Assembly: GCF_026151205.1 (NCBI RefSeq)
Contig: NC_087076.1
Coordinates: forward strand, 15,832,419-15,896,418
DNA from: Bolinopsis microptera
Taxonomy: Eukaryota; Ctenophora; Tentaculata; Lobata; Bolinopsidae
Length of the DNA stretch: 64,000 bases
Direction of reading: 5' to 3'
A program made the position numbers and the translations under genes. The notes under the pieces were generated by a model. It saw only the letters and a list, made by a program, of their open reading frames with translations. It made no database searches and was not told where the DNA came from. Positions 1 to 59,216 of this stretch are shown here, piece by piece. Within the stretch, counting starts at the first letter, position 1. Each line of letters starts with the position of its first letter.

Positions 1-818
1 GAGGACATGCGGTCTTTGGCATATTTAACAGATTTTCTGTACAGCTTATTAATCATAACCGAATCCTTTAGAGTTAGCTGCACGAGATTCTCTAAAGTAT
101 CAAACACCTCCTCAAAAAGTGCTTCGTTATCGGTGATACATAAAGAGAGGTTTATATTCTGCAGCAGGAATCGGGAGGTTTCATCAAGCACCATTCCTTG
201 CTTCTCTATATTTTGTTTTACAATGTGCAGCAGAGAAGATGGACTGTTTTGAGTAATCTGAATGATACAATTCAGTTGAATAGCATCTAGTCCAACATAG
301 TTCAGCTTCATGTAGGGTTCAACAAATATCTCAGCTCTGTTCTCCAGACCACAAATCTTCTGTACCACCACGTCCACAAACTTGTCACATTTCATCACTC
401 TCATACAAAACCTGGCCTCCTCAAACAAGAACAACAAAGTCTGGTAGTCAGTGTGAACACTAACATCACCCACCAGACCAGTGAAGTAGTCCCAACATCT
501 CCCTGACAACCACTCCACTTTGAAGACGTGACAGAGCTTGTTGACATCTCTGAACAAGTGCCTCACTAGTTGGATCTCCCCGCTGTACAGGGCCCCCAGG
601 AAACTCTTCACCGCCTCCCCCACAAAGTCCTCCATCTCCAGAACAGACTGTTGTAGTTCCAGGAACAGGTGAACAAACACTGAACTGTGGTAAGACAGGA
701 TTAGAGAGTTTGCTTTTATGTCCTCTCCTCCTCGTAACTTTAGGACCACGTTACCGTGAAACTGAGAGTGTAGGTTCTCTATACCAAAATCTGCCGGTAC
801 CACCACTTTAGGAGCCAT
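1..818 (-). CDS. BTB/POZ-domain protein, copy A (3' part beyond window edge)
   Basis: The minus-strand frame opens with ATG at 818 (MAPKVVVPADFG) and stays open for about 272 codons to the left edge, so this is the N-terminal half of a protein that should be about 550 aa by comparison with copy C. Residues about 15-105 look like a BTB/POZ fold: a DVVL-like strand (HGNVVLKL), the ANSLILSYHSSVFVHLF helix pair, then EAVKSFLGALYSGEI. A helical BACK-like stretch follows. BTB domains usually mediate dimerisation and often act as cullin-3 adaptors; no partner can be inferred here. After the codon near 312 the sequence departs strongly from copies B-E although alignable residues remain (LYRKSVK near 35-50). 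No introns are visible. Whether A is intact depends on sequence outside the window. Confidence 0.82.
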   Translation of the reverse strand, partial: MAPKVVVPADFGIENLHSQFHGNVVLKLRGGEDIKANSLILSYHSSVFVHLFLELQQSVLEMEDFVGEAVKSFLGALYSGEIQLVRHLFRDVNKLCHVFKVEWLSGRCWDYFTGLVGDVSVHTDYQTLLFLFEEARFCMRVMKCDKFVDVVVQKICGLENRAEIFVEPYMKLNYVGLDAIQLNCIIQITQNSPSSLLHIVKQNIEKQGMVLDETSRFLLQNINLSLCITDNEALFEEVFDTLENLVQLTLKDSVMINKLYRKSVKYAKDRMS

Positions 819-1189
819 GATATTCTAGTGGATTGATATTGTTAGTAAACAACACATTTTTGAGCTATTTTATAAAGAAAACGTTTAAGCACAAACTTGA
901 AGAGCTATTGTGCTGTTTAATATCTAATGACAGTTATAATAACATCAATCATTGATGAAAACAAAGAAGATTTGACAAAAAAAAACACTATTGAAAATTA
1001 TTCAATTTTATTTAAACGTATTAGATTCCCTGATATAAATGATTCACAGGGTACGGTGTTTCAAAAGTAGATTGGTATAAAGTGGTAAAGTTATTCAACA
1101 TAAATCGTAATTTCACCTACGAATCTGAGGATCTATAGCCACTCCAAACCAGTGGAATATCTAAAACTCGTAAAAATTGCTCAAAAGAA
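819..1189. other. Spacer between BTB copies A and B, duplicated at 13815-14183
   Basis: AT-rich spacer holding the 5' flank of copy A and the 3' flank of copy B. Most of it reappears almost base for base in the spacer between copies D and E, for example the block with GATTTGACA at about 970 and the block with AAAGTAGATTGGTATAAAG at about 1063. This shows that the spacer was duplicated together with its neighbouring genes. No separate gene is seen. Confidence 0.75.
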
Positions 1190-1435
1190 TCACAAAGTTA
1201 TGAACGCAGACAGCTTAAGAAAGTCACCAGGGGATAAGTATACACCACCTACTTTCCATGCTAACATTGATCCCTCATCATATTTTATCACAATACCGAA
1301 CTCATTCCAGGTAAAACTGGCTAAGAAGTATCTCATTCCATGGTCATACTCAAACAAAGGCACCAAATGAATTTTGTCCGCTTTCACAAAGTCAGGATGA
1401 ATATGAAGTCCCTCAGGATATTCTTCTTGATCTAA

Positions 1436-3393
1436 CAACAATACGGTTTTCGGCCGGGTCGGTCGTGTGAGCATGCGCTCCTTGATGCAACCAACACGAT
1501 TAGACACGACCTCTCCAAAAAAGAGGTCTCTCTACTCCTCCTACTTGATTTTAGCAAAGCGTTTGATGTAATTTCCCACGATATTCTCTTAGACAAACTG
1601 TATCATTATGGCATAAGAGGACTAGCACACCAATGGTTCAAGTCTTATCTAAGTTCCAGGAGTCAGTATGTTTCAATAGGGGGCACAAATTCTTCCTCAC
1701 AGTCCATGAGACACGGAGTGCCGCAAGGCAGTATTCTAGGACCTTTACTTTTCATAATATATATCAATGACATGCCAAAAATCAAATCGTACGCAAAATT
1801 TGTTTTATATGCTGACGACGCAAACATAATTATCTCAGGTAAAAATCATCAAGAAATACTACAAAAGATGACAGAATTTTCACCTTTATTGATAAACTGG
1901 GTAGATCAAAATGGTCTTTCGTTAAACCTTAAGAAAACGTGCTACATGCTCCTCTCACCCAACAGAACCTCAACACCTGACGTAAATATTCAAATTGCAG
2001 GCACCACTATTGAGCGAAAAACTGAGGCCCGATTTCTTGGCGTAATTGTTGACGAAAAATTGACCTGGACCAGTCACATTACTGCTCTTAAAGCGAAAAT
2101 GATGCGGTATATTGGTATTATGTACAAAATAAAAAGTCGGCTGCCGATTAAAGTTAGACTCCAGATATACCAAAGCTTTGTACAGTCTCATATAAACTAT
2201 TGTTCATTGATATGGGGTTTTGCTGCAAAAAGCCATATAGATGCTTTATTCAGCAAACAGAAGCAAGGAATAAGGGCTATTATGCCTGGCTTCGTAAACT
2301 ACTACTTTAAGGAAGGTGCCTTACCACAACACACAAAGCCATTTTTCAGTGAACATGAAATTCTCACTGTGCATGGTCTTATCGTTTACAACACAATTAT
2401 CTTGATGCATAAAGTTAAAAACATGCCACAATTAGTCCCCAAAAACATCTCTCAAGCTTTTCCCGCCGACATACCCACAAAACTTTCTGATCACACGTCA
2501 GCCTGCTCCTGGCTCCAGTTATACGGGAAAAAAACACTTTCAAAACAGTATTTTCTACAAGGGACCACTGCTCTCTGTCTTCGCAGACAAAGCAGACGTT
2601 ACTACACTTCCGACATTATTTTCGATAAATCTGTTCAAGACTAGTGCCAAGAAAATGCTACTTAATCTTCAAAGTGATGGTGATGTTAACGAGTGGCAAC
2701 CATTCCTACTGCACAATGTTCCTGGCCTAAGACAGTCTAGACGTGAAATTTAAACTTTTAACATTTAACCTGAATCGAATTTCAACTGAAACGAATATAA
2801 TCTAAGTTTAAATTAAGTCTATTGTCTAATTAATGGCTTGCAACAGGGAGCAGTATGAAAATCACACAACCCAACACATAGAAACTACACTAAATGACAC
2901 AAATTTAAATAACAACTTGCAATTCCTGACTACCAATATAATAACCGCTCGCATAACTACCCCCACTTAGCGTAGATAAGCAAGCATTTCACTGCCGCTA
3001 AATTCTTTTTCCATACATTAATCTCAATCGCGCACTCATAATTACTGTAAGCGCTGAGTTACCGGCCAAAATCATTAATCACTGATGGTAAAATTTTGCA
3101 CAAAATTTTAAAAACAATAGTCTAAGCTGTTCAGTGCAATTCTAAACTTCTTAACCTATAGGATCGATATTATGGATGTGTAATATCATGTGTTGGTGAA
3201 GCGTTGTGTTTTTAAATCTGTAGTTCATAGTACTTCATGATCACAGTGTACTTTTTGATAAACCGTGTGCAGTGCCCTTTCCAGAGGGTTTTTTTAAAAA
3301 GAATTCTTTAACGTTACTATTTTCTATCTATTACTGTTTGTATTATAATTTTGAGTAAACATTAATCGAGTATACCGCTCGATTCCCAATCAA
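1436..3393 (+). mobile_element. 5'-truncated non-LTR retrotransposon (LINE) inserted in BTB copy B
   Basis: The insertion is bounded by ATCTAA at 1430-1435 and 3394-3399, a short target-site duplication that is single in the intact sister copies. It begins inside a reverse transcriptase reading frame with no endonuclease domain, as expected for 5' truncation by target-primed reverse transcription. The coding part ends at 2753. About 640 bp of AT-rich 3' UTR-like sequence follows, ending near a small hairpin (ATCGAG...CTCGAT, about 3363-3383). No long poly-A tail is present. Confidence 0.85.
1460..2753 (+). pseudogene. Reverse transcriptase domain of a CR1/jockey-like LINE, truncated and frameshifted
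   Basis: The frame is open from about 1460 (HALLDATNTIRHDL), well before the first downstream Met at 1706, so the fragment starts inside the RT domain. The visible RT motifs are motif A LLDFSKAFD (about 1540-1566), motif B GVPQGSILGPLLF (about 1715), the catalytic YADD (about 1809) and FLGVIVDEKLTW (about 2034). The frame closes at 2644 (SVQD-stop), but the adjacent frame continues with a typical LINE C-terminus (DVNEWQPFLLHNVPGLR) to a TAA at 2751-2753. This implies a one-base indel near 2625. The endonuclease and the first RT blocks are missing, so the copy is dead. The assignment to the CR1/jockey group is by motif flavour only. Confidence 0.85.
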
Positions 3394-3631
3394 ATCTAAA
3401 CAAAGGTTTACTTTAAAGTGACTAAGGTTTTTTTTTAACATATTTGATAGATTTACAGATCTGGCTTGACAAAAATTTTCAGAAAAAATCATGTTCGCGG
3501 GAAGCAAAAATCCGATGAGTTTTTTAGGGGGAGGGGTAGGGGGTTGAGGGGGGTTGGGAAGGGTTGTCACATGACGAAAAATTTTTTGCAAAAATTAAAC
3601 AATCTTTATTTGTTGATATTATTCACCCCTG

Positions 3632-4130
3632 TTGCCTAGAGTGGTGGGTCTGCACTTGAGAAGAGTGGGTCTGGCCGCTAGAATGGTGGGTCTGCAATCT
3701 AGAAGTGGGTCTGGCAACCAGAATGATGGGTCTGTACCCTTAAAGAGTGGTCTGACAACCAGAGTGGTGGGTGTGCACTTGAGAATAGTGGGTCTGGCAG
3801 CTAGAATGGTGGGTATGCAATCTAGAAGTGGGTCTGTTAACCAGAATTGTGGGTCTACACCCTTGAAGAGTGGGTCTGGCAGCTAGAATGTTGGGTCTGC
3901 AATCTAGAAGTGGGTCTGGCAGTTAGAATGGTGGGTCTGCAATCTAGACGTGGGTCAGGCAACATGAATGGTGGGTCTGCACCCTTCAGGCTTAAAGAGT
4001 GGGTCTGACAACCAGAGTGGTGGGTCTGCACTTGAGAAGAGTGGGTCTGGCAGCTAGAATGTTGGGTCTGCAATCTATAAGTGGGTCTGGCAACCAGAAC
4101 GGTCGGTCTGCAGTCTGCACCACCCCTGCA
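3632..4130. repeat. GTGGGTCTG satellite, block 1
   Basis: Tandem repeat of about 40-42 bp built on two half-units, GTGGGTCTGGCAACCAGAAT and GTGGGTCTGCACTCTAGAA. Copies are degenerate, with CTGGCAGCTAGAATG and CTGACAACCAGAG variants. Open frames across it on both strands (VGLATRMVGLHSRR and QTHHSGCQTHSS types) are artefacts of the repeat. Confidence 0.9.
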
Positions 4131-4784
4131 GATTTCGTCGATTTCAGGTGCCGTCGGCACCATAAAAATTAAAAGCAAACATAAATTTTTTCCCCTAAAA
4201 TCAAACGCTTTCTGCGCAAAAAATCGACCTCAACAGAAAAAATTAAACATGGCTTCAAATCCAAATTTGAACCAGAGATTTTTCACTTCCTCTCGATAAA
4301 CTTAATTTTCAACCCAAAATAAAGTCTCAAAGGGGTAAATTACTCAGGTCAGGATTGTAGGCAATGATTATGCCAAACCATACATTTTTGTAAATTCATT
4401 AAACTTTCAATTTAGCCTAAAACACCCTATTTCGCAAAATTTTTCCGGGGGGCTGCGCCCCCCTAGCCCCCGCCAATGTGGTCCGCCCCTTACCTGGACC
4501 CCGCTGGGGGCCGCGCCCCCAGACCCCTGCCACAGCTTGCAGCTTCGCTTGCCGACAGCCCCCCCCCCCCCCCCAAAGAAAAATCCTGGCTACGTGCCTG
4601 AGCAAAATATAGGTTAAGGGCTTTTCAGATGATTTGGCTCCTCAACAGATACCGACGTACATAACGGTCAATATGTAGTCTAGGTTTACCTGGCCCGTAG
4701 GTTACGAATGTGCCCGAGGAGGAAAAAAAGCAAACTTAAGAAAATTTCTCGGGAACTTAAAAGTTCACCTCAAAACGAAATCTG
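4131..4784. other. AT-rich linker with a GC-rich CCGGGGGGCTGCGCCCCCC block
   Basis: Separates the two GTGGGTCTG satellite blocks. Positions 4420-4600 contain AAATTTTTCCGGGGGGCTGC and a C-run, followed by GGCTACGTGCCTGA. This is the same family as the C-rich tandem at 6090-7840, so the insert interior is itself duplicated. No gene is seen. Confidence 0.6.
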
Positions 4785-6065
4785 CACCTATGGTCTGCAC
4801 CCTTAAAGAGTGGGTCTGACAACCAGAGTGGTAAATATGCACTTGAGAAGAGTGGGTCTGGCAGCTGGAATGGTGGGTCTGCAATCTAGAAGTTGGTCTG
4901 GCAACCAGAATGGTGGGTGTACGTACACCCTTGAAGAGTGGGTCTGACAACCCGAGTGGTGGGTCTGGACTTGAGAAGAGTGGGTCTGGCAGCTGGAATG
5001 GTGGGTCTGCAATCTAGAAGTTGGTCTGGCAACCAGAATGGTGGCCGGTGGGTGTACGTACACCCTTGAAGAATGGGTCTGACAACCAGAGTAGTGGGTC
5101 TGGACTTGAGAAGAGAGGGTATGGCAGCTGGAATGGTGGGTCTGCAATCTAGAAGTTGGTCTGGCAACCAGAATGGTGGGTGTACGTACACCCTTGAAGA
5201 GTGAGTCTGACAACCCGAATGGTGGGTCTTCACTCTAGAATAATAGGTCTGGTGGGTCTACACTTTAGAAGAGTGGGTCTGGCAACTAGATTGGTGTGTC
5301 TGCAATCTATAAGAGTGGGTCTGGCAACCAGAATAGTGGGTCTGCACTCTGCAATCAAGGGAATCAAGATGAGTGAGTCTGGCAATCAGAATGGTGGGTC
5401 TGCACCTTAGGGTAGTGGGTCTGGAAACAAGAATGGTGGGTCAGAATTCTTGAATAGTGGGTCTTCACTCTAGCTAAGAGTGGGTCTGGCAACAAGAATG
5501 GTGGGTAAGAATTCTAGAATAGTGGGTCTTCACTCTAGAAGAGTGGGTCTGGCAACCAGAATGGTAAGTCTACACTCTGTCAAGTGTCAACCAGAATTGG
5601 GGGTCTAAACTAGAATATAGGATATATGGCAACCAGAATTGTGCGTCTGGAGTCTAGAGTCTAGAATAGTGGGTCCGGCAACCCGAAAGGTGAGTGTTCA
5701 CTCAAGAATAGTGGGTCTGGCAATCGGAATGGTGCGTCTACACTCTAGAAGAGTGGGGCTGGCAACCAGAATGGTAGGTCTTCGCCTTAGAAGAGTGGGT
5801 CTGGCAACCAGAATGGTGGGTCTGCATTTTAGAATAGTGGGTCTTGACTCTGTACCTACTAGAAGAGTGGGTCTCCTCTCTAGAAGAGTGAATCTGGCAA
5901 CCAGAATGGTAATTCTTCACTCTGTCAACCAGAATTGGGGGTCTATGAACTAGAATATAGGAGATATGACAACCAGAATTGTGGGTCTGGACTCTAGAAT
6001 AGTGGGTCTGGCAACCAAAATGTTGAGTCTGCACTCTAATAGAGTGGGTCTGGCAACTAGAATGC
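4785..6065. repeat. GTGGGTCTG satellite, block 2, with a higher-order unit
   Basis: Same family as the block at 3632-4130. At about 4795-5220 the units are organised into a longer repeat of roughly 130 bp, each copy marked by the palindrome GGGTGTACGTACACCC (about 4915, 5050, 5188). Further right the array becomes irregular, with variants ending in AGAATTCT or CACTCTAGAA. Confidence 0.9.
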
Positions 6066-6089
6066 AGACACGTAGCCAAGGGGAAGACC

Positions 6090-7840
6090 CCCGGAAAAAA
6101 ATTGAACCCCAAAAAAAATAAGCCCCCTAGTCCCCATGGTCGCCTGGTAAGTGGGCTGTGTTTATGACTGTTTGATTAAACGACACGACAGGCAATCGAC
6201 TTTAGCATTTCGTAAATTATTCCCAAATCCCACTATACAATATGTACTTATTCCATTCAATGTGACAAGTACTGAGTTCCCCCCTAGCCCCCAACTTTGT
6301 ATTATTGTGATGTCTGAAATTACAAATTTCTAATGCCAAATGTCGTCTGAAACACCCTATTTCTCAAAAATTTTCCGGGGGCTGCACCGGGCACCCCCAA
6401 CTTTGTATTATCGCCGTCCTACAAATTTCTTTAATGCCTAATGTCGTCTAAAACAAATAATTTCTAAAAATTTTCTTGGGGGCTGCGCCCCCCCCCAGTC
6501 CCCCAACTTTATATTATTGTGATGTCTGATTATTACTGCGCCCCCCCCCCAGCCCACCAATCTTGTATTATTGTAATGTCTGATTATTGCTGTCTCACAA
6601 ATGTCGTCTGGAACACCCTATTTCTCAAAAATTTTCCGGGGGCTGCACCCCCAACTTTGTATTATCGCCGTCCTACAAATTTCTTTAATGCCTAATGTCG
6701 TCTAAAACAAATAATTTCTAAAAATTTTCTTGGGGGCTGCGCCCCCCCCCAGTCCCCCAACTTTATATTATTGTGATGTCTGATTATTACTGCCCCCCCC
6801 CCAGCCCACCAACCTTGTATTATTGTAATGTCTGATTATTGCTGTCCCACAAATGTCGTCTGGAACACCCTATTTCTCAAAAAGTTTCCGAAGGCCAGGG
6901 CTGCGCCTGCCTAGCCCTCCAACTTTGTATTAATGTGATGTCTGATTATAATTACTGTCCTACAAATTTCTTTAATGTCAAATGTCGTCTAAAACACATA
7001 ATTTCTCAAAAATTTTCTGATTGGCTGCGCCCCCCCCCCTCCCTAGCCAACCAACTTTATATTATTGTGATGTCTCAGGATTATTACTGCCCTACTAATT
7101 TCTTTAATGCCTAATGTCGTCTGAATCACCCTATTTCTCAAAAATTTTCCGGGGGGTGCGCCCCCCTAGCCTCCCAACTTTGTATTATTAGATTATTGTG
7201 ATGTCTGATTATTACTGTCCTACAAATTTCTTTAATGCCAAATGTCGTCTAAAACACATTATTTCTCAAAAATTTTCTGGGGGTTGCGCCCCCCCGGCCC
7301 CCCAACTTTATATTATTGTGATGTCTGATTATTACTATCCCCAAATTTCTTTAATGCCAAATGCCGTTTTAATCACCCTATTTCTCAAAAATTTTCCTGG
7401 GGGTTCGCTCCCCTAGCCCACCAACTTTATATTATTCTGATGTATGATTATTGCTCTCCTACAAATTTCTTTAATGCCAAATGTCGTCTGAATCACCCTA
7501 TTTCTCAAAAATTTTCCGGGGGTTGCGCCCCCCCCCCCCCCCAGCCCACCAACCTTGTATTATTGTAATGTCTGATTATTGCTGTCCTACAAATGTCGTC
7601 TGGAACACCCTATTTCTCAAAAATTTTCCGAAGGCCAGGGCTGCGCCCCCCTAGCCCCCCAACTTTGTATTATTGTGATGTCTGATTATTACTGTCCTAA
7701 AAATTTCTTTAATGCCAAATGTCGTCTAAAACACATAATTTCTCAAAAATTTTCTGGGGGGCTGCGCCTTCCCCCCTCCCTAGCCAACCAAAGGAGCTTC
7801 GCCCCGGCTACGTGTCGTGTCGGGCTACGTGCCGAGAATC
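6090..7840. repeat. C-rich tandem family with TTGTATTATTGTGATGTCTG units
   Basis: About a dozen degenerate units of roughly 120-160 bp. Each joins AATTTCTTTAATGCCAAATG, CACCCTATTTCTCAAAAATT, a GGGGGCTGCGCCCCCC core of variable length and an AACTTTGTATTATTGTGATG segment. Two larger duplications are evident, such as 6340-6600 against 6600-6850. Short ORFs over it are repeat artefacts. The region ends in GGCTACGTG motifs at about 7806-7836. Confidence 0.85.
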
Positions 7841-9449
7841 GAAAAAACTTAATCTTTAAATGAATAACGGAACCTTCATTATGAAGTTACGAGATGATAA
7901 TATAATTGGGAGGCAAAGTGGGTATCGGGCTTGGGGCTCATAATGCGCAAAATTTGGCCGCTGTCGAGTGGGTCTGCCTAAAATTCACAGATCTAGCTAT
8001 GGGTCTGAGACATTTGTAAAAAAAAAACCTTTAAAGTTTAAACTTGTGTGGTTCACCAGACTTCATATCAGGGGTACTTTTTAGAAGGAACCCACATTTT
8101 CCAGGTAAACAACAATCAATCGTGTTAGGGTGTTTGAAATGAAAAGAAAAAGATAGTGGTCTGTAAAACAGATCTCTAACTTTGAACTTATTTACCTTTG
8201 ATATTTTGTTATCAATTCCGACTGTCTTTCCAACCCGTCTCACACTCTCTTCCTTAGACGTAAGATCACAACCGTTTTCTTTTATAATATCAGCCTCTAT
8301 GACATCATTGTCATTCCATAATTCAAGGAATTCTGGTGATAATCGGCTCCATCCTCTCTTGCGACGAATCTGCTCTATTTTATGTACCATATTAGGTGTC
8401 AGCAATACTTTAAAATTGGAATTATCTTTGAATGCCAAAAATCCCTCGATGAGCATGTACAAGTTTCTAACAAGAGGAGACTCTTCTGTCACATCTAGAA
8501 ATTCACGTTTATTAAGTCCTCGAAATGACTTAAATGAACAAAAGATATTCGGAATTTATGTTGAACTTGAGGGAACTACAGAGACAGAGTATACTATATT
8601 TGATAGTCCTGATGAACAGCTTGAAGGCTGGCTTTTCTGTCTTTTCTTGAACTCTTTTACAGACTTCCTGTACAATGTGTTAACAAATAGTGCATCTGTA
8701 TCAGATGATTTCGTTGCACTATCTAAAACATCAAACAGCTCTTCAAAAAGAGCTTCGTCATCAGCAATACATTTACAAAGATCAACATTTTCTAACAGGT
8801 AACGAGAGGCTACATTGAATACTTCTCCCTCATTCTCCAGATTCTTTTTCATTATCTTCAGCAAGAACATTGGATTATCATATTTTGTTATCTGTATCAT
8901 GAGATCCAGTTGACTAGTTTCCAGTTCAGAGTAGTTCCTCATGTAGGGTTCAACAAATATCTCAGCTCTGTTCTCCAGACCACAAATCTTCTGTACCACC
9001 AGGTCCATAAACTTGTCACATTTCATCACTCTCATACAAAACCTGGCCTCCTCAAACAAGAAAAATAAGGTCTGGTAGTCAGTGTGAACACTAACATCAC
9101 CCACCAGACCAGTGAAGTAGTCCCAACATCTCCCTGCTAACCACTCCACTTTGAAGACGTGACAGAGCTTGTTGACATCTCTGAACAAGTGCCTCACTAG
9201 TTGGATCTCCCCGCTGTACAGGGCCCCCAGGAAACTCTTCACCGCCTCCCCCACAAAGTCCTCCATCTCTAGAACAGACTGTTGTAGTTCCAGGAACAGG
9301 TGAACAAACACTGAACTGTGGTAGGATAGGATCAGAGAGTTTGCTTTCATGTCCTCTCCTCCTTGTAACTTTAGGACCACGTTACCATGAAACTGAGAGT
9401 GTAGGTTCTCATTACTAAAATCTGCGGGTACCACCACTTTAGGAGCCAT

Positions 9450-10063
9450 GGTGTTCTAGTGGATTAACATTGTTAGCATCTTTCAAATTAAGTGTTTAAA
9501 ATTAAGAGAAGAAAAAAAAATTATTCTTGACTGAGCTGGGTCGGCTATAAAAGGAATTGATAAACGGTAAGGAAAATTATGAAATTATGAGAGTTATCAT
9601 TACTCCTTTTGTTAATTGGTTCATCACTAAACACGAAGTAACGTACATGTATAAAACGAAGGTAATATTTATAAATATTACCTTCGTGATATAAATATCA
9701 AAAAGTCCAATAACGGGTACACAATTTCTTTTTTAACAATTAGCAAATAAATAAAATTTCGTGAGAAATATTTTATACACGTGATGAGGAAATCAACACT
9801 GATTTAATAGCACGATTATTAGAAAGTAACATTAATGGAATGTAATAACTGAATTTATGAACTTATATGTTCCTCAAACTCAATGATTTATGCAGGCTGT
9901 AAAAAGAGTGCATGAATTAACACATGTCTATTCACGATAGTAGATATAACGTAAATCGTAGGTTTGTCAAAGAATTTTGGAATTAATAACCACTCCACGA
10001 TATAATATTTATATGAAACACGTTGAGTATTTTAATCTCGTAAACTTTCTGTTTCATATTGGA
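9450..10063. other. Spacer between BTB copies B and C, with a perfect palindrome
   Basis: AT-rich, no gene. Directly upstream of copy B the short GTTCTAGTGGATTAACATTG block is shared with the other copies. Positions 9656-9687 form a perfect 32-bp palindrome with half-site ACGAAGGTAATATTTA. The stretch 9950-10063 is the 3' flank of copy C. Confidence 0.7.
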
Positions 10064-11728
10064 TCATAACGTTATGAACGCACACAACTTCAAAGGTGTA
10101 TCTGAGTATATTTTAAAACTGCCGATATCCCAAACTGACAAAGATCCCTCACCTGTCACATTATTTACACCGTAGTCATTCCAAGTGAACATTGCTAAGC
10201 TGTATCTCATCCCAGAGTTGAATTCAATCAAAGGCACCAAATGAATTTTGTCCGCTTTTACAAACTCAGGATGAATATGAAGTCCCTCAGGATAATCTTC
10301 TTGATCAAAACAAAGGTTTACTTTAAACTTGTGTGGTTCACCAGACTTCATATCAGGGGTACATTTTAGAAGGAACCCACATTTTCCAGGTAAACAACAA
10401 TCAATCGTGTTAGGGTGTTTGAAATAGAAAGCAAAAGAGTGTGGTTTGTAAAACAGATCGTTAAGTCTACACTTATTTATCTTTGATATTTTATTATCCA
10501 GCCCGAATGTTTTTCCAACCCTTGGCCTTCTAACACTCTCTTCCTTAGACGTAAGATCAAAACCGTTCTCTTTTATAGTATCAGCCTCTTTGACATCAGC
10601 GTCATGCCACAATTCAAGGAACTCAGGTGATATTCTGCTCCATCCTCTCTTGCGACGAATCTGGTACATTTCATGTACCATATCGGGAGTTATCAACTGA
10701 TAATGACCATTATAACATTTGAAAGCTACAATTACTTCAATCAGCATGTACAAGTTTGATATAAGAGGAGATTCTTTAACAGCATCAAGAAATTCCTGGG
10801 TATTCAGTCCTTCAAACATCTCATACGAACAAAAAATATGAGCAATTTCTGTTGAACTTGAGGGTACTACAGATAAAGAGGAAGACACAGTTGATGAGTT
10901 TGGAGAACTTACAGGTGGTTTTTTCTTGAACTCTCTTACAGATTTTCTGTACAATGTGTTAACAAATAGTGCACATGAATCAGATGATTTAGTTGCACTA
11001 GTATCTAAAACATCAAACAGCTTCTCAAAAAAAGCTTCATCATCAGCAATGCATTTACAAAGATCAATATTTTCTAGCAGGTAACGAGAAGCTGCATTGA
11101 ATACTCCTCCCTCATTCTCCAGATTCTTCTTCATTATCTTCAGCAAGAGCTTAGGATTATGATTGGTGATCTGTATTATAAGATCCAGTTGACTAGTTTC
11201 CAGTTCAGAGTAGTTCTTCATGTAGGGTTCAACAAATATCTCAGCTCTGTTCTCCAGACCACAAATCTTCTGTACCACCAGGTCCACAAACTTGTCACAT
11301 TTCATCACTCTCATACAAAACCTGGCCTCCTCAAACAAGAACAACAAAGTCTGGTAGTCAGTGTGAACACTAACATCACCCACCAGACCAGTGAAGTAGT
11401 CCCAACATCTCCCTGACAACCACTCCACTTTGAAGACGTGACAGAGCTTGTTGACATCTCTGAACAAGTGCCTCACTAGTTGGATCTCCCCGCTGTACAG
11501 GGCCCCCAGGAAACTCTTCACCGCCTCCCCCACAAAGTCCTCCATCTCTAGAACAGACTGTTGTAGTTCCAGGAACAGGTGAACAAACACTGAACTGTGG
11601 TAAGACAGGATCAGAGAGTTTGCTTTCATTTCCTCTCCTCCTTGTAACTTTAGGACCACGTTACCGTGAAACTGAGAGTGTAGGTTCTCTATACCAAAAT
11701 CTGCTGGTACCACCACTTTAGGAGCCAT
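10064..11728 (-). CDS. BTB/POZ-domain protein, copy C (intact)
   Basis: Single-exon gene of 554 codons from ATG at 11728 to TGA at 10064. It is the reference copy of the array. Residues about 15-105 form a BTB/POZ domain (HGNVVLKLQGG, ANSLILSYHSSVFVHLF, VKSFLGALYSGEI, LCHVFKVEWL). Residues about 110-240 are helical and BACK-like. A low-complexity Ser/Pro linker follows at about 270-295 (KKKPPVSSPNSSTVSSSLSV). A C-terminal domain of about 250 aa is not recognised; it contains RRKRGWSRISPEFLELW, HPNTIDCCLPGKCGFLLK and EDYPEGLHIHPEFVKADKI. There is no signal peptide, so a soluble intracellular protein is likely. The usual role of such BTB proteins as cullin-3 adaptors or scaffolds is only family knowledge. 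The start matches that of all four sister copies. Confidence 0.88.
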   Translation of the reverse strand: MAPKVVVPADFGIENLHSQFHGNVVLKLQGGEEMKANSLILSYHSSVFVHLFLELQQSVLEMEDFVGEAVKSFLGALYSGEIQLVRHLFRDVNKLCHVFKVEWLSGRCWDYFTGLVGDVSVHTDYQTLLFLFEEARFCMRVMKCDKFVDLVVQKICGLENRAEIFVEPYMKNYSELETSQLDLIIQITNHNPKLLLKIMKKNLENEGGVFNAASRYLLENIDLCKCIADDEAFFEKLFDVLDTSATKSSDSCALFVNTLYRKSVREFKKKPPVSSPNSSTVSSSLSVVPSSSTEIAHIFCSYEMFEGLNTQEFLDAVKESPLISNLYMLIEVIVAFKCYNGHYQLITPDMVHEMYQIRRKRGWSRISPEFLELWHDADVKEADTIKENGFDLTSKEESVRRPRVGKTFGLDNKISKINKCRLNDLFYKPHSFAFYFKHPNTIDCCLPGKCGFLLKCTPDMKSGEPHKFKVNLCFDQEDYPEGLHIHPEFVKADKIHLVPLIEFNSGMRYSLAMFTWNDYGVNNVTGEGSLSVWDIGSFKIYSDTPLKLCAFITL

Positions 11729-12057
11729 GGTGTTCTAGTAGATTAACATTGTTAGTAACCTTAACATTTTTGAGCTATTTTTTAGAAACATTCTGTAATT
11801 ATTTGTACATCACTTTTAAAAGTAAGATAAAATTATGGGGTTTCAATGGGGTTTCAATACTTGAATGCAATGACAAAGGTCAGCGCTTATGAGTAATTGT
11901 ATTGCACAAGCGATTTTCAATCGCGCGTACTGGAAAATGAGCTAGGGTGAATGCACATAAACTGTAGACTCAACAGACATAATTAGGTTACTACATTTTC
12001 AAGAGATCATAACAAAAATTATCAAAAATTACAAATAGAAATGAAACACAATACAAA
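11729..12057. other. Spacer between BTB copies C and D
   Basis: Starts with the shared 5' flank of the BTB copies (GTTCTAGTAGATTAACATTG), then unique AT-rich sequence. Nothing else is recognised. Confidence 0.6.
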
Positions 12058-13814
12058 TTATGCGATAACGCAATCTCTGTTATTAGTTGGTGCAATTACG
12101 CAATCTCCAGAACTAGCTGGCGGGTCTGATATTGTGATGAAAGCGATCAACTTCAAACTAGTTACACACTGTATGTTGGCGTTACCTAATTGAAAATGTA
12201 GGGAATTAAAAAAAGAACCATACAGTTCGTAAAAAGCCGGCTGAAAAATGTCGCGTATACCAAACTCATTCCACGTAAAACTGGCTAAGCAATATGAGTA
12301 TTCCGACTCGCTAACTGTTTTAAGCATGGGAACCAAATGAAGTCTCTCCGCTTTCACAAACTCTGGATGAATATGAAGTCCCTCGGGATATTCTCTTTGG
12401 TCATAACAAATGTTTACTTTAAACTTGTGTGGTTTATTAAACTTCAAAATAGGCGTGCTTTTCAGTAGGAACCCACACTTTCCAGGTAGATTACAATCAG
12501 TAGTGTCAGGATGTTTGAAATGATAAGCAAAGGATTGAGGGTAAGAAAACAGGTCTGAAATTGTACAGACACTATTATTTGATAACTTATAGTCTGTTCC
12601 AACTATCTTCCCAACTCTCCTGACACTCTCCTCTTGAGAAATAAGATCTTGGCTGTTTTCCTTAATATTATCAGCCACTTTGACATCAAAATCAAGCCAC
12701 GATGCCAGGAATTCAGGTGATATTCTGCTCCATCTCTCTTGCGACGAATCTCCTCTATTTTATGTACCATATCGGGAGTCATTAACTGAGCATGACCATT
12801 ACAATATGTAAAAGCTACAATTGCTTCAATCAGCATGTACAGGTTTAATATAAGAGGAGATGTTTTTACTGCCTCAAGAAATTCCTTGTCACTAAACTCA
12901 CGAAAATACTCAAATGAACAAAAGATATGAGCAATTTCTGATGATTTTGAGGGACTTAATTGGATAGCGGGAACTGAAGTTGATGGGTCAGGGAAACTTA
13001 CAGGTGGTCTTTTCTTGAGCTCTCTCACAGACTTTCTGTACAATGTGTTAACAAATAGTGCATCTGAATCAGATGATTTAGTTGCACTATCTAAAACATC
13101 AAACAGCTCCTCAAAGAAAGCTTCATCATCAGCAATGCATTTACAAAGATCAATATTTTCTAGCAGGTAACGAGAAGATTTATTGAATATTCCTCCCTCA
13201 TCCTCCAGACTATTTTTCATTATTTTCAGTAAGAACATTGGATTATTATTGGTGATCTGTATCATTGTGTCCATTTGACTAGTTTCCAGTTCAGTGTAGT
13301 TCTTCATGTAGGGTTCAACAAATATCTCAGCTCTGTTCTCCAGACCACAAATCTTCTGTACCACCAGGTCCACAAACTTGTCACATTTCATCACTCTCAT
13401 ACAAAACCTGGCCTCCTCAAACAAGAACAACAAAGTTTGGTAGTCAGTGTGAACACTAACATCACCCACCAGACCAGTGAAGTAGTCCCAACATCTCCCT
13501 GCTAACCACTCTACTTTGAAGACGTGACAGAGCTTGTTGACATCTCTGAACAAGTGCCTCACTAGTTGGATCTCCCCGCTGTACAGGGCCCCCAGGAAAC
13601 TCTTCACCGCCTCCCCCACAAAGTCCTCCATCTCCAGAACAGACTGTTGTAGTTCCAGGAACAGGTGAACAAACACTAAACTGTGGTAAGATAGGATCAG
13701 AGAGTTTGCTTTCATGTCCTCTCCTCCTTGTAACTTTAGGACCACGTTACCGTGAAACTGAGAGTGTAGGTTCTCTATACCAAAATCTGCTGGTACCACC
13801 ACTTTAGGAGCCAT
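12058..13814 (-). pseudogene. BTB/POZ-domain gene copy D, single frameshift
   Basis: ATG at 13814 opens a 403-codon frame through the BTB and BACK-like parts. It goes out of frame near 12735, where copy C has CCATCCTCTC (plus strand) and D has CCATCTCTC, one base fewer. The correct frame continues without stops from the second Arg-rich segment to the C-terminal domain (CNLPGKCGFLLKSTP, REYPEGLHIHPEFVKAERLH) and ends at 12058. D has a C-terminal tail (SDPPASSGDCVIAPTNN) absent from B, C and E. One deleted base in an otherwise open gene could also be an assembly error, in which case D would be functional. Confidence 0.85.
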
Positions 13815-14183
13815 TCTATAACTCTATTAGATTAATATTGTTAGTACCGTAAACAACACATTTTTGAACTATTTTATAGAGAAAACTTTTAAGCACAAAC
13901 TTTAGGAGCCATTGTGCTGTTTAATATTTAAAGACAGTTATTGATGAAAACAAAGAAGATTTGACAGAAAAACATTATTGAAATTATTCAATTTTATTTA
14001 AACGTATTTGATTCCCCGATATAAATGATTCACAGGCTCACAGGGTACGTTGTTTCAAAAGTAGATTGGTATAAAGTGGTAAAGTAATTCAACATAAATC
14101 GTAACTTCTCCTACGAATTTAGGGATCTATAGCCACTCCAAACCCGTGGAATATCTAAAACTCGTAAAATTTGCTGAAACGAA
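13815..14183. other. Spacer between BTB copies D and E (duplicate of 819-1189)
   Basis: Aligns along most of its length with the A-B spacer, differing by small indels such as the missing TAATAACATCAATC segment. No independent gene. Confidence 0.75.
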
Positions 14184-15846
14184 TCACAAAGTTATGAACG
14201 CAGACAGCTTAAAATAGTTATCAGGGAATATGTATGCATCACCTACTACCCATTTTAATGATGATCCCTCATCATCATTTATCACCTCACTTATACCAAA
14301 CTCATTCCAGGTGAAAGTGGCTAAGCAGTATCTCATTCCAGAGTCGATTCAAACAAAGGCACCAAATGAATTTTGTCCGCTTTCACAAACTCAGGATGAA
14401 TATGAAGTCCCTCAGGATATACTTCTTGATCTAAACAAAGGCTTACTTTAAACTTGTGTGGTTCACCAGACTTCATATCAGGGGTACATTTTAGAAGGAA
14501 CCCACATTTTCCAGGTAAACAACAATCAATCGTGTTAGGGTGTTTGAAATGAAAAGCAAAAGATAGTGGTCTGTAAAACAGATCTCTAACTTTGCACTTA
14601 TTTACCTTTGATATTTTATTATCCATCCCGACTGTCTTTCCAACCCTTCGAACACTCTCTTCCTTAGACGTAAGATCGCAACCGTTTTCTTTTATAATAT
14701 TAGCCTCTTCGACATCAATGTCATGCCAAAATTCAAGGAATTCAGGTGATATTCTGCTCCATCCTCTCTTGCGACCGAATCTGCTCTATTTTATGTACCA
14801 TATTAGGTGTCAGCAATACTTCAAAATTGGAATTATATTGGAATGCAAAAAATCCCTCGATGAGCATGTACAAGTTTCTAACAAGAGGAGACTCTCCAGT
14901 CACATCTAGAAATTCACGTTCATTAAGTCCTCGAAATGATCGAATGAACAAAAGATATTCGGAATTTCTGCTGCACTTGAGGAACTACAGTGACAGAGTA
15001 TGCTACATTTGATAGTCCTGATGAACAACTTGAAGGCTGTCTTTTCTTGAGTTCTCTTACAGATTTCCTGTACAATGTGTTAACAAATAGTGCATCAGAA
15101 TCAGATGATTTAGTTGCACTATCTAAAACATCAAACAGATCCTCAAAAAGAGCTTCATCATCAGCAATGCATTTACAAAGATCAATATTTTCCAGCAGAT
15201 AACGAGAAGCTTCATTGAATACTCCTCCTTCATTCTCCAGATTCTTCTTCATTATTTTCAGCAAGAACATTGGATTACTTAATGTAATCTGCAACATTAA
15301 ATCTAGTTGGCTAGTTTCTAGTTCAGTGTAGTTCTTCATGTAGGGTTCAACAAATATCTCAGCTCTGTTCTCCAGACCACAAATCTTCTGTACCACCAGG
15401 TCCACAAACTTGTCACATTTCATCACTCTCATACAAAACCTGGCCTCCTCAAACAAGAACAACAAAGTCTGGTAGTCAGTGTGAACACTAACATCACCCA
15501 CCAGACCAGTGAAGTAGTCCCAACATCTCCCTGACAACCACTCCACTTTGAAGACGTGACAGAGCTTGTTGACATCTCTGAACAAGTGCCTCACTAGTTG
15601 GATCTCCCCGCTGTACAGGGCCCCCAGGAAACTCTTCACCGCCTCCCCCACAAAGTCCTCCATCTCCAGAACAGACTGTTGTAGTTCCAGGAACAGGTGA
15701 ACAAACACTGAACTGTGGTAAGACAGGATCAGAGAGTTTGCTTTCATGTCCTCTCCTCCTTGTAACTTTAGGACCACGTTACCGTGAAACTGAGAGTGTA
15801 GGTTCTCTATACCAAAATCTGCTGGTACCACCACTTTAGGAGCCAT
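14184..15846 (-). pseudogene. BTB/POZ-domain gene copy E, multiple frameshifts
   Basis: ATG at 15846 opens the same BTB/BACK-like start as the other copies, but the frame is lost after VVP near 14995 (one C missing relative to copy B). A further indel lies near 14940. An extra C near 14775 (TTGCGACCGAATC against TTGCGACGAATC in C) shifts the frame again. One base is missing near 14345. Between the lesions the frames encode FRGLNEREFLDV, CCLPGKCGFLLKCTPDMK and EVYPEGLHIHPEFVKADKI, and the end KLSAFITL with its stop at 14184-14186 is kept. With several independent lesions E is a true pseudogene. It is the closest relative of copy B. Confidence 0.88.
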
Positions 15847-16332
15847 TTCTGTTCTAGTGGATTAACATTGTTAGCCTTTCATACAATTTTATGAAACTAT
15901 TTTCAATGAACATTAGAGTCAATATTCTGTATAGTATTAAGAGCCAAAGTATACCATCACTTGAAGATTTAAAACGTTAAGTTGGCTGAGTTATGCCAAA
16001 CGAATAAAATCAAATTAATTTATAATTTGAGGTCGTAAGGTACAGAAATGTATCTTCACTAAAAAGATAAATTATTAGTGTGATTTGAAGAGATATTAAA
16101 ACTTGAACCACTTAGAAACGTAGAGCGTTATAATAAAACAATACAGAATGTATACAGCATGGTGGAATCTTCAAATAGAGACAACAGTGAATGAATGTCA
16201 ATGTTCTTCGCTTGATTGCATGGGTGGCTCATTAATAAGTCATAATAACCTCTTTAACCTCATTTTACCTTAGCTCATTATGAGAGGAAGTTCATATTCA
16301 TAATTACAGTCAATGTGTACTTATATTCTTGA
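15847..16332. other. Intergenic spacer between BTB copy E and MED6
   Basis: AT-rich sequence containing the 5' flank of copy E and, further right, the presumed 3' UTR of MED6. No other feature is recognised. Confidence 0.55.
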
Positions 16333-19300
16333 TCACCTTTGAGGCTCATCTTTTGTCTCCTGTTTGATGTTTGATTGTTCTGTGACAACTGGCCCAGTGC
16401 GCAGCATAAAATGTTGATACTTCTTAGTTAAAATGTCCATCAGCTTATCAATACTGAAAATAATGTATGTGATCAGTAATTTTAGAAACAGTTCAAGGCA
16501 TATTTGAATAATCAGAAATGAAAGAACATCACGATCAACTGCATCAACGAGATAAAGAGAGAAAATAAATACCTAAAAATCACAATCTACATAACCAATT
16601 ACTACCTTTCCTTTTGGAACTGTGAACAAGGTTCACTTCGTAGCTTCTCCTCCTTTGATGGTTCAGGAGGATCAAATGACCAGTAATGCCCTTTATTAGG
16701 ATCATACCTGAAATTTATTCGAGGTTCTCAAAACGTTGACATAAAGTTTCGTATACATTGATGAAATCAAAGGCTGCATCTCACTGTCAAATGTTCACTT
16801 CTATATTACAATAAATTGCAAAAAAATTGACTCTATGTGTGGAGGTAACTCAATAGAATAGGCAGGATGAGCACTTGTAGGTAGGATTGCACATTCATTA
16901 CTACAAAGGGGGGGGGGGGGGGGGGGGTGTCACGTCCGTCTATGTCCGCCTATGTCCTGTCCTTTTTGGATTCTATGAGACAACGGACGTGTTTTTTGGG
17001 ACATTGGCGGACACGGACGGACATTGGCGGACTCGGACGGACATTGGAATCCTTTTTGGATTCTATGAGACAACGGACGTGTTTTTTGGGACATTGGCGG
17101 ACACGGACGGACATTGGCGGACTCGGACGGAAATTGGCGGACTCGTACTCTGTTTTATAGATCTGGTACATTGTTGGCTCGGAATATTTGTTCAATATAA
17201 CACATACGGGGTGATGAAGTGATCACTGTGGATTAGTCTACCCAGCGGTCTCCAGTAATCTGTCTCTATCGGGTCCTTCAACGTTAAGCTGTTAAGCTGA
17301 TGTTGTCGTTCTATTGTTTATATTATCTCTATAATAGACGAAATAACGTACGCTCATTGGTCAGATATTTAATTGATAAACCAATGGACGCGGCGATCTG
17401 AACAGCGAGTCTCTTAACTTTAGGGGGGGAGGGGGGGTGTCACGTCCGTCTATGTCCGCCTATGTCCTGTCCTTTTTGGATTCTATTCTTTTTCGCAACT
17501 TCTATGTATTATAATTTTGTACAAAACAAAAGACTTATTTATCACACTAAAGCTATTAATAGCTTTAACTTATATCAAATTATATAGGGATCCAGGAAAA
17601 GGCCCCAGGAGGAGGAGGAGGAGGAGGACTGGGGAGGAGGAGGACTGTTGAGGACTGATGAGGAGGACTGAGGACGAGGAAGAGGAGTAGGAGGAGGACT
17701 GAGGAGGGGAGGAGGAAGAGGACTGGGGAGGATCAGGAAGACCCAGGAGGAGGACCCAGGAGGAGGACCCAGGAGGAGGACCTAGGAGGAGGAGGAGAAC
17801 TGAGGAGGATGACTGAGGAGGAGAAGGACTCAGGAGGAGGACTCAGGAGGACTGAGAAGGAGGAGGACTGAGGAGGATGGCTGAGGAGGATGGCTGAGGA
17901 GGATGACTGATAGGGAGGAGGAGGAGGAAGAGGAGGAAGAGGACTGAGGAGGAGGAGGGGAAGGACCCAGGAGGAGAAGGAGGACCCAGGAGGAGAAGGA
18001 GGACCCAGGAGGAGGACCCAGGAAAAGGCCCCAGGAGGAGGAGGAGGACCTAGGAGGAGGAGGAGAACTGAGGAGGATGACTGAGGAGGAGAAGGACTCA
18101 GGAGGAGGACTCAGGAGGACTGAGAAGGAGGAGGACTGAGGAGGATGGCTGAGGAGGATGGCTGAGGAGGATGACTGATAGGGAGGAGGAGGAGGAAGAG
18201 GAGGAAGAGGACTGAGGAGGAGGAGGGGAAGGACCCAGGAGGAGAAGGAGGACCCAGGAGGAGAAGGAGGACCCAGGAGGAGGACCCAGGAAAAGGCCCC
18301 AGGAGGAGGAGGAGGACTGGGGAGGAGGAGGACTGAGGAGGACTGAGGAGGAGGACTGACGATGACTGAGAAGGAGGAGTACTGAGGAGTACTGAGGAGG
18401 ATGGCTGAGGAGGATGGCTGAGGAGGATGACTGAGGAGGATGACTGAGAGGGAGGAGGAGAAGAACTCAGGAGGAGGACTCAGGAGGAAGAGGAGGAGGA
18501 GGGGAGGAGGAAGAGGACTGGGGAGGATCAGGAAGACCCAGGAGGAGGACCCAGTAGGAGGAGGAGGAGGAGGACCCAGGAGGAGGAGGAGGACTGAGGA
18601 GGACTGAGGAGGAGGACTGACGATGACTGAGAAGGAGGAGTACTGAGGAGTACTGAGGAGGATGGCTGAGGAGGATGGCTGAGGAGGATGACTGAGGAGG
18701 ATGACTGAGAGGGAGGAGGAGAAGAACTCAGGAGGAGGACTCAGGAGGAAGAGGAGGAGGAGGACTCAGGAGGAGGACTTAGGAGAAATGAGAAGGAGGA
18801 CTGAGGAGAACTGAGGCGGAGGAGGAGAAGGACTGAATAGGAGGAGAAGGAGGGGGACTGGGAGAGGACTGAGGAGGAGGAGGACTGATGAGAAGGATGA
18901 GGAGGAGGACTGAGGAGGAGGACTGAGGACCGAGGAGGAAGAGGAGGATGAAGAGGAGGAGGAGGACCCAGGAGGAGGAGGACTGAGGAGGACTGAGTAG
19001 GATGGCTGAGGAGGATGATTGAGAGGGAAGAGGAGGAGGACTGAGGAGGAGGAGGAAGACTGAATAGGAGGAGGAGGGGGACTAGGGGAGGACTGAGGAG
19101 GAGGATGGAGGACTGAGGAGAAGGATGAGGAGGAGGACTGAGGTGGACTGAGGAGGACTGAGAAGGAGGAGGACTGAGGAGGAGGACTGGGGAGGAGGAG
19201 GACTGTTGAGGACTGATGAGGAGGACTGAGGACGAGGAAGAGGAGTAGGAGGAGGACTGAGGAGGGGAGGAGGAAGAGGACTGGGGAGGATCAGGAAGAC

Positions 19301-30078: not shown

Positions 30079-47526
<17,448 letters not shown>

Positions 47527-54284: not shown

Positions 54285-54712
54285 GTTCACCCTACACCCT
54301 ACACCCTACACCCTACACCCTACACCCTACACCCTACACCCTACACCCTACACCCTACACCCTACACCCTACACCCTACACCCTACACCCTACACCCTAC
54401 ACCCTACACCCTTCACCCTACACCCTACACCCTACACCCTACACCCTACACCCTACACCCTACACCCTACGCCCTACACCCTACACCCTACACCCTACAC
54501 CCTGCACCCTACACCTTACATCCTACACCCTACACCTTACATCCTACACCCTACACCATACACCTTACACCTTACACCTTACACCCTACACCCTACACCC
54601 TACACCCTACACCCTACACCCTACACCCTACACATTACACCTTACACCTTACACCTTACACCCTACACCTTACACCTTACACCTTACACCCTACACCCTA
54701 CACCCTACACTG
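54285..54712. repeat. Telomere-like heptamer array (ACCCTAC)n
   Basis: About 60 tandem copies of CACCCTA on the plus strand (TAGGGTG on minus). The first half is nearly uniform. The second half has ACCTTAC and ATCCTAC variants. A 7-bp unit gives a 21-bp coding period, hence the spurious HPTPYTL ORF. Confidence 0.95.

Positions 54713-58369: not shown

Positions 58370-59216
<847 letters not shown>

What the first reader, a model, noticed from the sequence alone, without database searches (positions are those of the whole stretch)
1..15846. BTB array with homogenised 5' ends and diverged 3' parts
All five copies share almost the same first 190 or so codons, including synonymous sites, over about 570 bp. 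The boundary is sharpest in copy A near 312: upstream coding sequence matches copy C closely, whereas downstream only scattered residues match. This suggests ongoing gene conversion of the BTB-coding half, or repeated capture of one BTB cassette by different C-terminal halves. Conserved N-terminal and diverged C-terminal halves are what a diversifying adaptor family would show.
Basis: partly seen in the sequence, partly recalled or inferred. Interest (0 to 1): 0.75.

Follow-up and report, generated by a model that had tools for sequence, protein, structure and literature searches.

The report
Comb-jelly BTB genes sharing front halves
In what appears to be a comb-jelly genome, neighbouring BTB genes seem to have repeatedly copied the same front half onto one another while their back halves drifted apart, and several other rows of this large gene family show the same pattern.

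Summary
Five minus-strand BTB copies (A-E) share a 5' block from about 31 bp before the ATG to codon ~171 (about 510 coding bp, slightly shorter than reported). Synonymous divergence is 0.01-0.09 in the block; in codons 172-272 it is 0.16-0.42 among B-E and 1.6-2.6 for A. Protein-level selection cannot produce this, and nucleotide constraint alone does not fit: the block differs by dS 0.24-0.53 between this array and a sister group. Copy A's block groups with B-E, but its 3' half appears to branch before the B-E/sister-group split. Gene conversion of the 5' half (for A, at least one longer exchange) is the best explanation. The genome (264.65 Mb; about 1,500 ctenophore-type spliced leaders; probably Bolinopsis microptera) holds at least 150 BTB-half matches. 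Six of ten arrays compared show a 5'-homogenised pattern; four show none, or only a far-3' drop. The C-terminal half has no significant Pfam or PDB relative. Diversifying selection was not shown. Closest parallel: regional gene conversion in clustered protocadherins, where the 3' part is homogenised.

The parts
306..848 (-). Copy A, homogenised 5' block (31 bp before the ATG to codon ~171)
   Evidence: Block DNA match 98% (G000:C5:15832724-15833266)
1..305 (-). Copy A, start of the diverged 3' half (continues outside the window; 556 codons open in all)
   Evidence: dS 1.61-2.55 to other copies in codons 172-272; full copy G000:C5:15831575-15833236
1190..1435 (-). Orphan C-terminal end of a further copy (A2), next to sequence leading into a reverse-transcriptase ORF
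   Evidence: blastn and tblastn to copy C
1706..2644 (+). Reverse-transcriptase ORF (retrotransposon remnant) beside A2
   Evidence: RVT_1, E 3.6e-14
8935..9476 (-). Copy B, homogenised 5' block
   Evidence: 97% DNA match
8031..8934 (-). Copy B, 3' part: stop at codon 298, homology lost near 8031 (about codon 470)
11214..11760 (-). Copy C, homogenised 5' block
   Evidence: query
10064..11213 (-). Copy C, diverged 3' half (intact gene of 554 aa)
13300..13846 (-). Copy D, homogenised 5' block
   Evidence: 97% DNA match
12058..13299 (-). Copy D, diverged 3' half with a frameshift (homology to copy C ends near 12130)
15332..15874 (-). Copy E, homogenised 5' block
   Evidence: 99% DNA match
14184..15331 (-). 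Copy E, diverged 3' half with frameshifts and stops
819..849 (-). Copy A: branch-point/3'-splice-acceptor-like sequence (CTAAC...CTAG) directly before the ATG; with its counterparts before the ATG of B-E it is where identity among all five copies starts
   Evidence: acceptor-like sequence close before the ATG in nearly all copies printed; read by eye, no transcript evidence

Best explanation
A tandem array of single-coding-exon BTB genes whose 5' coding half (start of the coding exon through the BTB domain, codons 1-~171) has repeatedly been homogenised by ectopic, possibly GC-biased, gene conversion, while the 3' half escaped and diverged. Proposed mechanism: a double-strand break or strand exchange near the 5' end of one copy is repaired from another copy. 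The upstream intron/promoter sequence is mostly too different to pair and the 3' half is too heterologous, so tracts are confined to the shared exon start. Each round keeps the 5' half pairable and leaves the 3' half free to drift. Selection for compatible BTB (dimerising) surfaces may help to fix converted copies. Copy A additionally records at least one longer exchange that joined D/E-type upstream sequence and block to an older 3' half. SHOWN: the homogenised block, its two edges, low within-group against higher between-group synonymous divergence, tree conflict for A, raised GC3 in the C5 and C3 groups. INFERRED: conversion as the process, breaks starting at the 5' end, GC-bias as the cause of GC3, selection on BTB pairing, any adaptor role, whether it is still going on. 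My odds: conversion or an equivalent ectopic exchange as the cause about 0.85; breaks starting at the 5' end about 0.4; GC-biased repair about 0.45.
For: Block dS 0.009-0.093 versus 1.61-2.55 (A) and 0.16-0.42 (B-E) in codons 172-272. Median dS within C5 B-E against C5 B-E to C3 array: block 0.057/0.063 (codons 1-85/86-171) against 0.243/0.530; codons 172-478 0.30-0.72 against 0.77-0.97, so the block is not fixed by nucleotide constraint alone. A: median block dS 0.051/0.032 to B-E, but 1.4 to 3.0 (the cap) beyond the block to both B-E and the C3 array. Block DNA tree: C5 including A 100/100, AU rejects A with the C3 group (p 0.019). 3' protein tree: A outside C5_C + C3 group (SH-aLRT 91), AU rejects A+C5_C (p 0.037). 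Third-position runs test (19 copies, 400 permutations): 11 of 171 pairs globally significant, all 11 fragments within codons 5-177. GC3 100/171 in copy C's block vs 124/382 beyond it (p 1.4e-8); singletons in the C3-group block run GC to AT (40 of 250 GC sites vs 10 of 261 AT sites, p 4e-6), so GC is held against mutation there. Other arrays, change points with the 5' side lower: C3:20.4 Mb 28 of 28 pairs (8 intact of 10 copies), C8:3.88 Mb 6 of 6, C8:4.0 Mb 4 of 6, C5:15.13 Mb 2 of 3. C2:7.36 Mb: in two of three pairs codons 1-170 are at dS 0.00-0.18 and codons 271 on at 1.03-1.85 (no permutation test). Two C8 arrays about 117 kb apart on opposite strands share codons 1-100 at dS 0.03-0.06, later segments 0.41-1.13 (14 of 16 cross pairs with the 5' side lower), which simple unequal crossing-over between direct repeats does not explain.
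Against: Four of ten arrays show no early 5' contrast (C2:8.5, C2:9.84) or only a late 3' drop (C11:20.6, C2:4.86). Some significant change points go the other way: 1 of 5 in C8:4.0, 1 of 1 in C2:8.5, 2 of 5 in C2:4.86, 1 of 15 between the C8 arrays. Dispersed copies on C7, C10, C13 and C3:7.65 Mb have a block as similar to the C3 array (dS 0.06-0.09) as array members are to each other, so either conversion also runs between chromosomes or the block has a lower synonymous rate; codons 1-85 are also slow between groups (0.24 against 0.77-0.97). Pair B-E shows no contrast. Incompatible sites do not single out the block: in C5 3 of 6 pairs, all through one site (180), and in the C3 group 87 of 231 pairs in the block against 230 of 630 just after it. 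Raised GC3 is strong only in the C5/C3 groups, and the GC-to-AT excess in the C5 block alone is not significant (11 of 242 vs 5 of 269, p 0.12). The DNA tree of codons 173-272 is unrooted and does not place A (A's branch 0.91; C5 on one side, 86/100). The 3' protein tree is a quick one and warns of long branches meeting at A; the protein AU test on the BTB half was not significant (p 0.386). No population or read data, so 'ongoing' is not shown.
Confidence: 0.8

Rival explanations
1. Strong purifying selection or nucleotide-level constraint (RNA structure, regulatory or splicing signals) on the BTB exon keeps it identical without any exchange.
For: Block dN is low, and codons 1-85 evolve slowly at synonymous sites even between groups (0.24 vs 0.77-0.97 downstream); dispersed copies share the low block dS.
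Against: The same block differs by dS 0.53 (codons 86-171) between C5 and C3 groups and by about 1 to saturation between most deeper arrays (exceptions C11:20.6-C2:8.5 at 0.40-0.45 in codons 1-100 and the two C8 arrays), yet is 0.00-0.15 between members of the C5 and C3 groups; A's block is C5-type although its 3' half appears older than the C5/C3 split.
Confidence: 0.08
2. Chimera formation by unequal crossing-over or segmental duplication: one BTB front half (with its upstream sequence) is joined to different back halves, without recurrent conversion.
For: A matches D over the upstream sequence too (K 0.08 at -370..-35, 0.12 at -620..-370; the other pairs compared 0.5-1.0), so A's shared tract with D is at least 1.1 kb; the C10:12.6 Mb array carries related BTB halves on unrelated tails; the 3' half of one C8:3.88 copy groups with C8:4.0 copies.
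Against: Most pairs diverge upstream of the block as well as downstream, so the block is an island rather than a front half; A's block is closer to E and C (dS 0.018, 0.028) than to D (0.057), although among the pairs compared only D shares its upstream; many pairs are affected in several arrays, including opposite strands.
Confidence: 0.25
3. RNA-templated conversion: cDNA of one copy, made by retrotransposon reverse transcriptase, rewrites the others.
For: Single coding exons, identity beginning at or just before a splice-acceptor-like site, a reverse-transcriptase remnant inside the array.
Against: cDNA synthesis from the 3' end should homogenise 3' ends, whereas the 5' end is homogenised here; poly(A) and target-site signs were not looked for.
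Confidence: 0.06
4. Assembly artefact: reads of near-identical blocks collapsed or mis-joined.
For: Tandem near-identical blocks are hard to assemble; reads were not available.
Against: The pattern recurs in six of ten arrays on several large contigs, between dispersed copies and on opposite strands, and copies carry private substitutions inside the block.
Confidence: 0.04

Closest known systems
Clustered protocadherins (fugu, also zebrafish and human): regional gene conversion
   Same: Tandem variable exons; one part homogenised at the nucleotide level with a discrete boundary, the other diverged; GC3 raised in the homogenised part (passages of PMC1852091 seen).
   Different: There the 3' part of the variable exons (from EC4 or EC5 on) is homogenised and the 5' part diverges; here the 5' BTB half is homogenised. 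Different proteins; here also sharing between arrays in opposite orientation.
MATH-BTB (BATH) and F-box adaptor expansions in nematodes and plants
   Same: Large lineage-specific expansion with a conserved interaction domain and a diverged partner-binding part (recalled, from no call).
   Different: No MATH, Kelch or F-box match here; order is BTB first, then an unknown C-terminal half; diversifying selection is the claimed driver there (recalled), whereas pooled pN/pS in the C3 array's diverged half is below 1.
General concerted evolution of duplicated genes by gene conversion (review PMC3924837, abstract start and passages)
   Same: Within-group similarity exceeds between-group similarity.
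   Different: Confined to one half of the coding exon and repeated in several arrays of one family.

Membership tests
BTB/POZ domain proteins (PF00651) | Match to the BTB profile above the curated cut-off | tested here: met
   The 5 window N-terminal frames scanned score 32-36 bits, cut-off 20.5; 25 of 25 aligned family members match at E up to 1
BTB-BACK(-Kelch) proteins | BACK domain and Kelch repeats after the BTB domain | tested here: not met
   No BACK or Kelch match in Pfam (at E up to 1, up to 5, up to 10; the program's filters drop weak matches); the region after the BTB domain is called BACK-like here only by position
MATH-BTB (BATH) adaptors | MATH domain | tested here: not met
   No MATH match
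CUL3 substrate adaptors | Binding to CUL3 through the BTB domain | not testable with these tools
CNOT11 C-terminal domain | Homology of the C-terminal half to CNOT11 | tested here: not met
   E 4.7e-4 with a 6-sequence profile, but no CNOT11 hit at E up to 5 with a 21-sequence profile and no Pfam support
Regional gene conversion / concerted evolution (protocadherin type) | Much lower dS in one region than in the neighbouring region of the same gene pairs | tested here: met
   (9 of 10 pairs; not B-E)
Regional gene conversion / concerted evolution (protocadherin type) | Within-group similarity far above between-group similarity in the homogenised region | tested here: met
Regional gene conversion / concerted evolution (protocadherin type) | Raised GC3 in the homogenised region | tested here: met
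   Met for the C5/C3 groups; weak or absent in other arrays
Regional gene conversion / concerted evolution (protocadherin type) | Copies more similar to array neighbours than to orthologues in a related species | not testable with these tools
   No second ctenophore genome was within reach

The most novel reading that the evidence does not exclude
A ctenophore family of at least 150 BTB-half loci, many of them single-coding-exon genes in tandem arrays, is organised as a conserved, repeatedly re-copied BTB 'head' and a free-running, previously undescribed C-terminal 'recognition' half (with invariant Cys/His positions), the heads acting as a homology anchor through which tails are exchanged between copies, arrays and even unrelated domains (nucleoporin-FG, KH). 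It would be a modular, fast-evolving recognition or protein-turnover repertoire in an early-branching animal lineage.
Probability: 0.2. Interest if true: 0.8.

Novelty: new variant of a known kind. Interest (0 to 1): 0.55.

Why it matters
Regional gene conversion that spares part of a coding region is known from a few families. Here it seems to recur in several arrays of one large family of a ctenophore, with the 5' side homogenised in the six arrays that show it clearly. That makes testable where exchange starts in an animal outside the bilaterians, whether conversion is GC-biased there, and whether a re-copied interaction domain with free tails builds a recognition repertoire. The C-terminal half also looks like an unclassified protein domain.

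Tried and rejected
CNOT11 relationship of the C-terminal half: seen with a small profile, lost with a wider one; rejected. Relatives in plasmids and genome contigs: none found. Positive selection: pooled 30-codon pN/pS in the C3 array (10 copies, broken ones included) is below 1 in every window beyond codon 120; codons 91-120 have no synonymous difference; the one window above 1 (61-90, 1.60) lies inside the block on few changes. In C5 the short segment 273-300 gives pairwise dN/dS 0.88-2.38 in five pairs, on about 20 synonymous sites. Site-level tests not run. Control family (GPCRs, PF00001) for a genome-wide 5' bias: not completed. Rfam and tRNA scans of the window: nothing.

Papers: nine searches were answered. 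In the rows listed (titles and abstract starts; long lists were cut, e.g. 12 of 145 and 10 of 23) I saw no description of this family; (ctenophore + 'BTB domain') listed 4 of 4 papers, none about it by title. Only passages of PMC11797021, PMC10232365, PMC8527503, PMC1852091 and PMC3924837 were read.

First readings that I corrected: the loci lie in contig orientation, so the first 20-copy alignment was wrong and was replaced. Rows dropped before counts: the C13 copy from the runs test; proteins under 480 aa and the C10:12.6 Mb array from the array dS table and change points; the wide profile took copy C and 24 of the 39 frames listed, and its C-terminal version left out the three C2:4.86 Mb copies and one C8:4.0 copy. 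Copy B is still in the within-C5 median for codons 479-554 (1.33), which its unrelated sequence inflates; I do not use that value.
Full report
What is there. Window 1-15846 holds five minus-strand copies (A-E) of a BTB gene and a sixth orphan C-terminal end at 1190-1435 beside a reverse-transcriptase remnant. Copy C is intact in one open frame (554 aa). A is open over 556 codons in the genome. B has a stop at codon 298, D a frameshift (first stop at codon 404), and E frameshifts and stops (first at codon 308). The only Pfam match with E below 0.001 is the BTB domain (the best of the others, DUF7830, reaches 0.0036).

The block. From about 31 bp before the ATG to codon ~171 the five copies are nearly identical; all ten pairs are 92-100% identical in every 50-bp bin from 0 to +500. 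From +550 to +800 A is 54-66% identical to the others, and B-E take intermediate values. Synonymous divergence is 0.009-0.093 in the block; in codons 172-272 it is 1.61-2.55 for A against the others and 0.16-0.42 among B-E. A change-point test on third positions finds a break in 9 of 10 pairs (at most 3 of 2000 permutations); pair B-E shows none. At fourfold sites 9 of 10 pairs differ between block and rest at p below 0.05, again not B-E.

Genome context. The window is G000:C5:15832419-15896418 in a 264.65-Mb genome of 232 contigs. It holds 1527 matches (716 + 811; reversed-pattern control 0) to a sequence closely similar to the spliced leader published for the ctenophore Hormiphora californensis (passage of PMC8527503; search), which marks it as a ctenophore. 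Its size fits Bolinopsis microptera (265 Mb, 13 chromosomes, 346 scaffolds; passage of PMC11797021): the eight contigs whose lengths I saw are 16-24 Mb, and the matches listed lie on contigs numbered 1-13 apart from one BTB match on C76. The scaffold count differs, so the name is an inference. The BTB half gives 150 matches (150 of 350 candidates scored), most in long open frames and many in tandem arrays; the C-terminal half gives 131; the BTB profile gives 148 (150 of 309 scored). All three are lower bounds. The block DNA occurs nearly full length at 20 places of 32 matches: five here, ten in an array at C3:20.38-20.41 Mb, and five dispersed (two at C3:7.65 Mb, C7, C10, C13).

Why exchange and not constraint. 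Within C5 B-E the block has median dS 0.057/0.063 (codons 1-85/86-171), but 0.243/0.530 against the C3 array; for codons 172-478 the medians are 0.30-0.72 within C5 and 0.77-0.97 between. Between deeper arrays the BTB half is mostly at about 1 or saturated (exceptions are C11:20.6-C2:8.5 and the two C8 arrays). A's block is C5-type (medians 0.051/0.032), while beyond the block A is 1.4 to 3.0 (the cap) from both C5 B-E and the C3 array. The block DNA tree joins all C5 copies (100/100; AU against grouping A with the C3 copies p 0.019). The DNA tree of codons 173-272 is unrooted and does not place A. The 3' protein tree, a quick one that warns of long branches, puts A outside C5_C plus the C3 group (AU against A+C5_C p 0.037); the protein AU test on the BTB half was not decisive (p 0.386). 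A GENECONV-like runs test on third positions gave 11 of 171 pairs globally significant, all inside codons 5-177. Site incompatibilities do not single out the block: three of six informative pairs in the C5 block, all through one site, and in the C3 group 87 of 231 pairs in the block against 230 of 630 in codons 173-272.

Copy A in detail. A also shares D's upstream sequence (K 0.08 at -370..-35; 0.12 further up, where the preceding copy ends), while the other pairs compared there are at 0.5-1.0. So A carries at least one longer exchange, D/E-type upstream plus block joined to an old 3' half, in addition to the homogenisation (A's block is nearer to E and C than to D).

Generality and its limits. 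Ten arrays were compared by dS. Six show a 5'-low, 3'-high contrast: this one; C3:20.4 (28 of 28 pairs, breakpoints at codons 176-280); C8:3.88 (6 of 6); C8:4.0 (4 of 6); C5:15.13 (2 of 3); and C2:7.36 (two of three pairs, no permutation test). C2:8.5 and C2:9.84 show none; C11:20.6 and C2:4.86 drop only at codons 361-485. A few significant breaks run the other way: 1 of 5 in C8:4.0, 1 of 1 in C2:8.5, 2 of 5 in C2:4.86, 1 of 15 between the C8 arrays. The two C8 arrays, about 117 kb apart on opposite strands, share codons 1-100 at dS 0.03-0.06 but 0.41-1.13 later. Dispersed copies share the block with the C3 array as closely as array members do, so conversion between chromosomes or a lower block rate must also act.

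GC. GC3 is about 0.6 in the block and 0.3 after it in the C5 and C3 groups (p 1.4e-8 for copy C), although singletons in the C3-group block run from GC to AT (40 of 250 GC sites vs 10 of 261 AT sites; in the C5 block 11 of 242 vs 5 of 269, not significant). This fits GC-biased conversion, as inferred for fugu protocadherins (passage of PMC1852091), but other arrays show raised GC3 weakly or not at all.

Gene structure. In nearly all copies printed a 3'-splice-acceptor-like sequence stands close before the ATG (by eye). With a spliced leader in the genome, the coding exon is probably joined to it or to a 5'-UTR exon. In C5 the identity begins at or just before this acceptor.

The back half. The C-terminal half has no significant Pfam or PDB relative; an initial CNOT11 hit vanished with a wider profile. 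Among 21 aligned members two Cys and two His are invariant and a third His nearly so (C153, C159, H193, H205; H195; numbering of the aligned segment), perhaps a metal site. In the C10:12.56-12.59 Mb array the BTB halves carry unrelated tails; of five proteins scanned one has nucleoporin-FG repeats (E 3.8e-23) and one a KH domain above cut-off (E 2.9e-6).

Function. BTB domains usually dimerise and many serve as ubiquitin-ligase adaptors (recalled). Nothing here tests that. Pooled pN/pS in the C3 array's diverged half stays below 1; only a short C5 segment gives dN/dS above 1. A 'diversifying adaptor' is a possibility, not a result.

Verdict. It is a new variant of a known kind (regional gene conversion), interesting for its 5' polarity, its repetition across arrays and its unexplored host family.

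Noticed in passing
window 36255-36283 (-): Exact copy of the genome's common spliced-leader sequence; a diverged tandem pair lies at 62740-62770 and 62952-62982 inside a 212-bp repeat.
   Followed up: partly
G000, whole genome: 1527 dispersed spliced-leader-like sequences, some as inverted pairs tens of bases apart, about twice the 718 reported for Hormiphora (passage); they may ride in a repeat.
   Followed up: no
L034-L036 (G000:C10:12559001-12589000): Array of related BTB halves with unrelated tails: nucleoporin-FG repeats, KH domain, PT/PSA repeats, proline-rich.
   Followed up: partly
L028-L030 (G000:C8:3.87-4.02 Mb): Two opposite-strand arrays share the first 100 codons; the 3' half of C8_3.88_5711 groups with C8_4.0 copies, so tails may move too.
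   Followed up: partly
window 17607-21085, 41990-42673, 54288-54710, 58375-59217: Long low-complexity or tandem arrays: AGG-rich, 44-mer x 15.5, (CACCCTA)n, (GAGG)n.
   Followed up: no
window 23182-23703 (+): 173-codon open frame without a Pfam match at E up to 5; it resembles mobile-element proteins of marine invertebrates (recalled).
   Followed up: no
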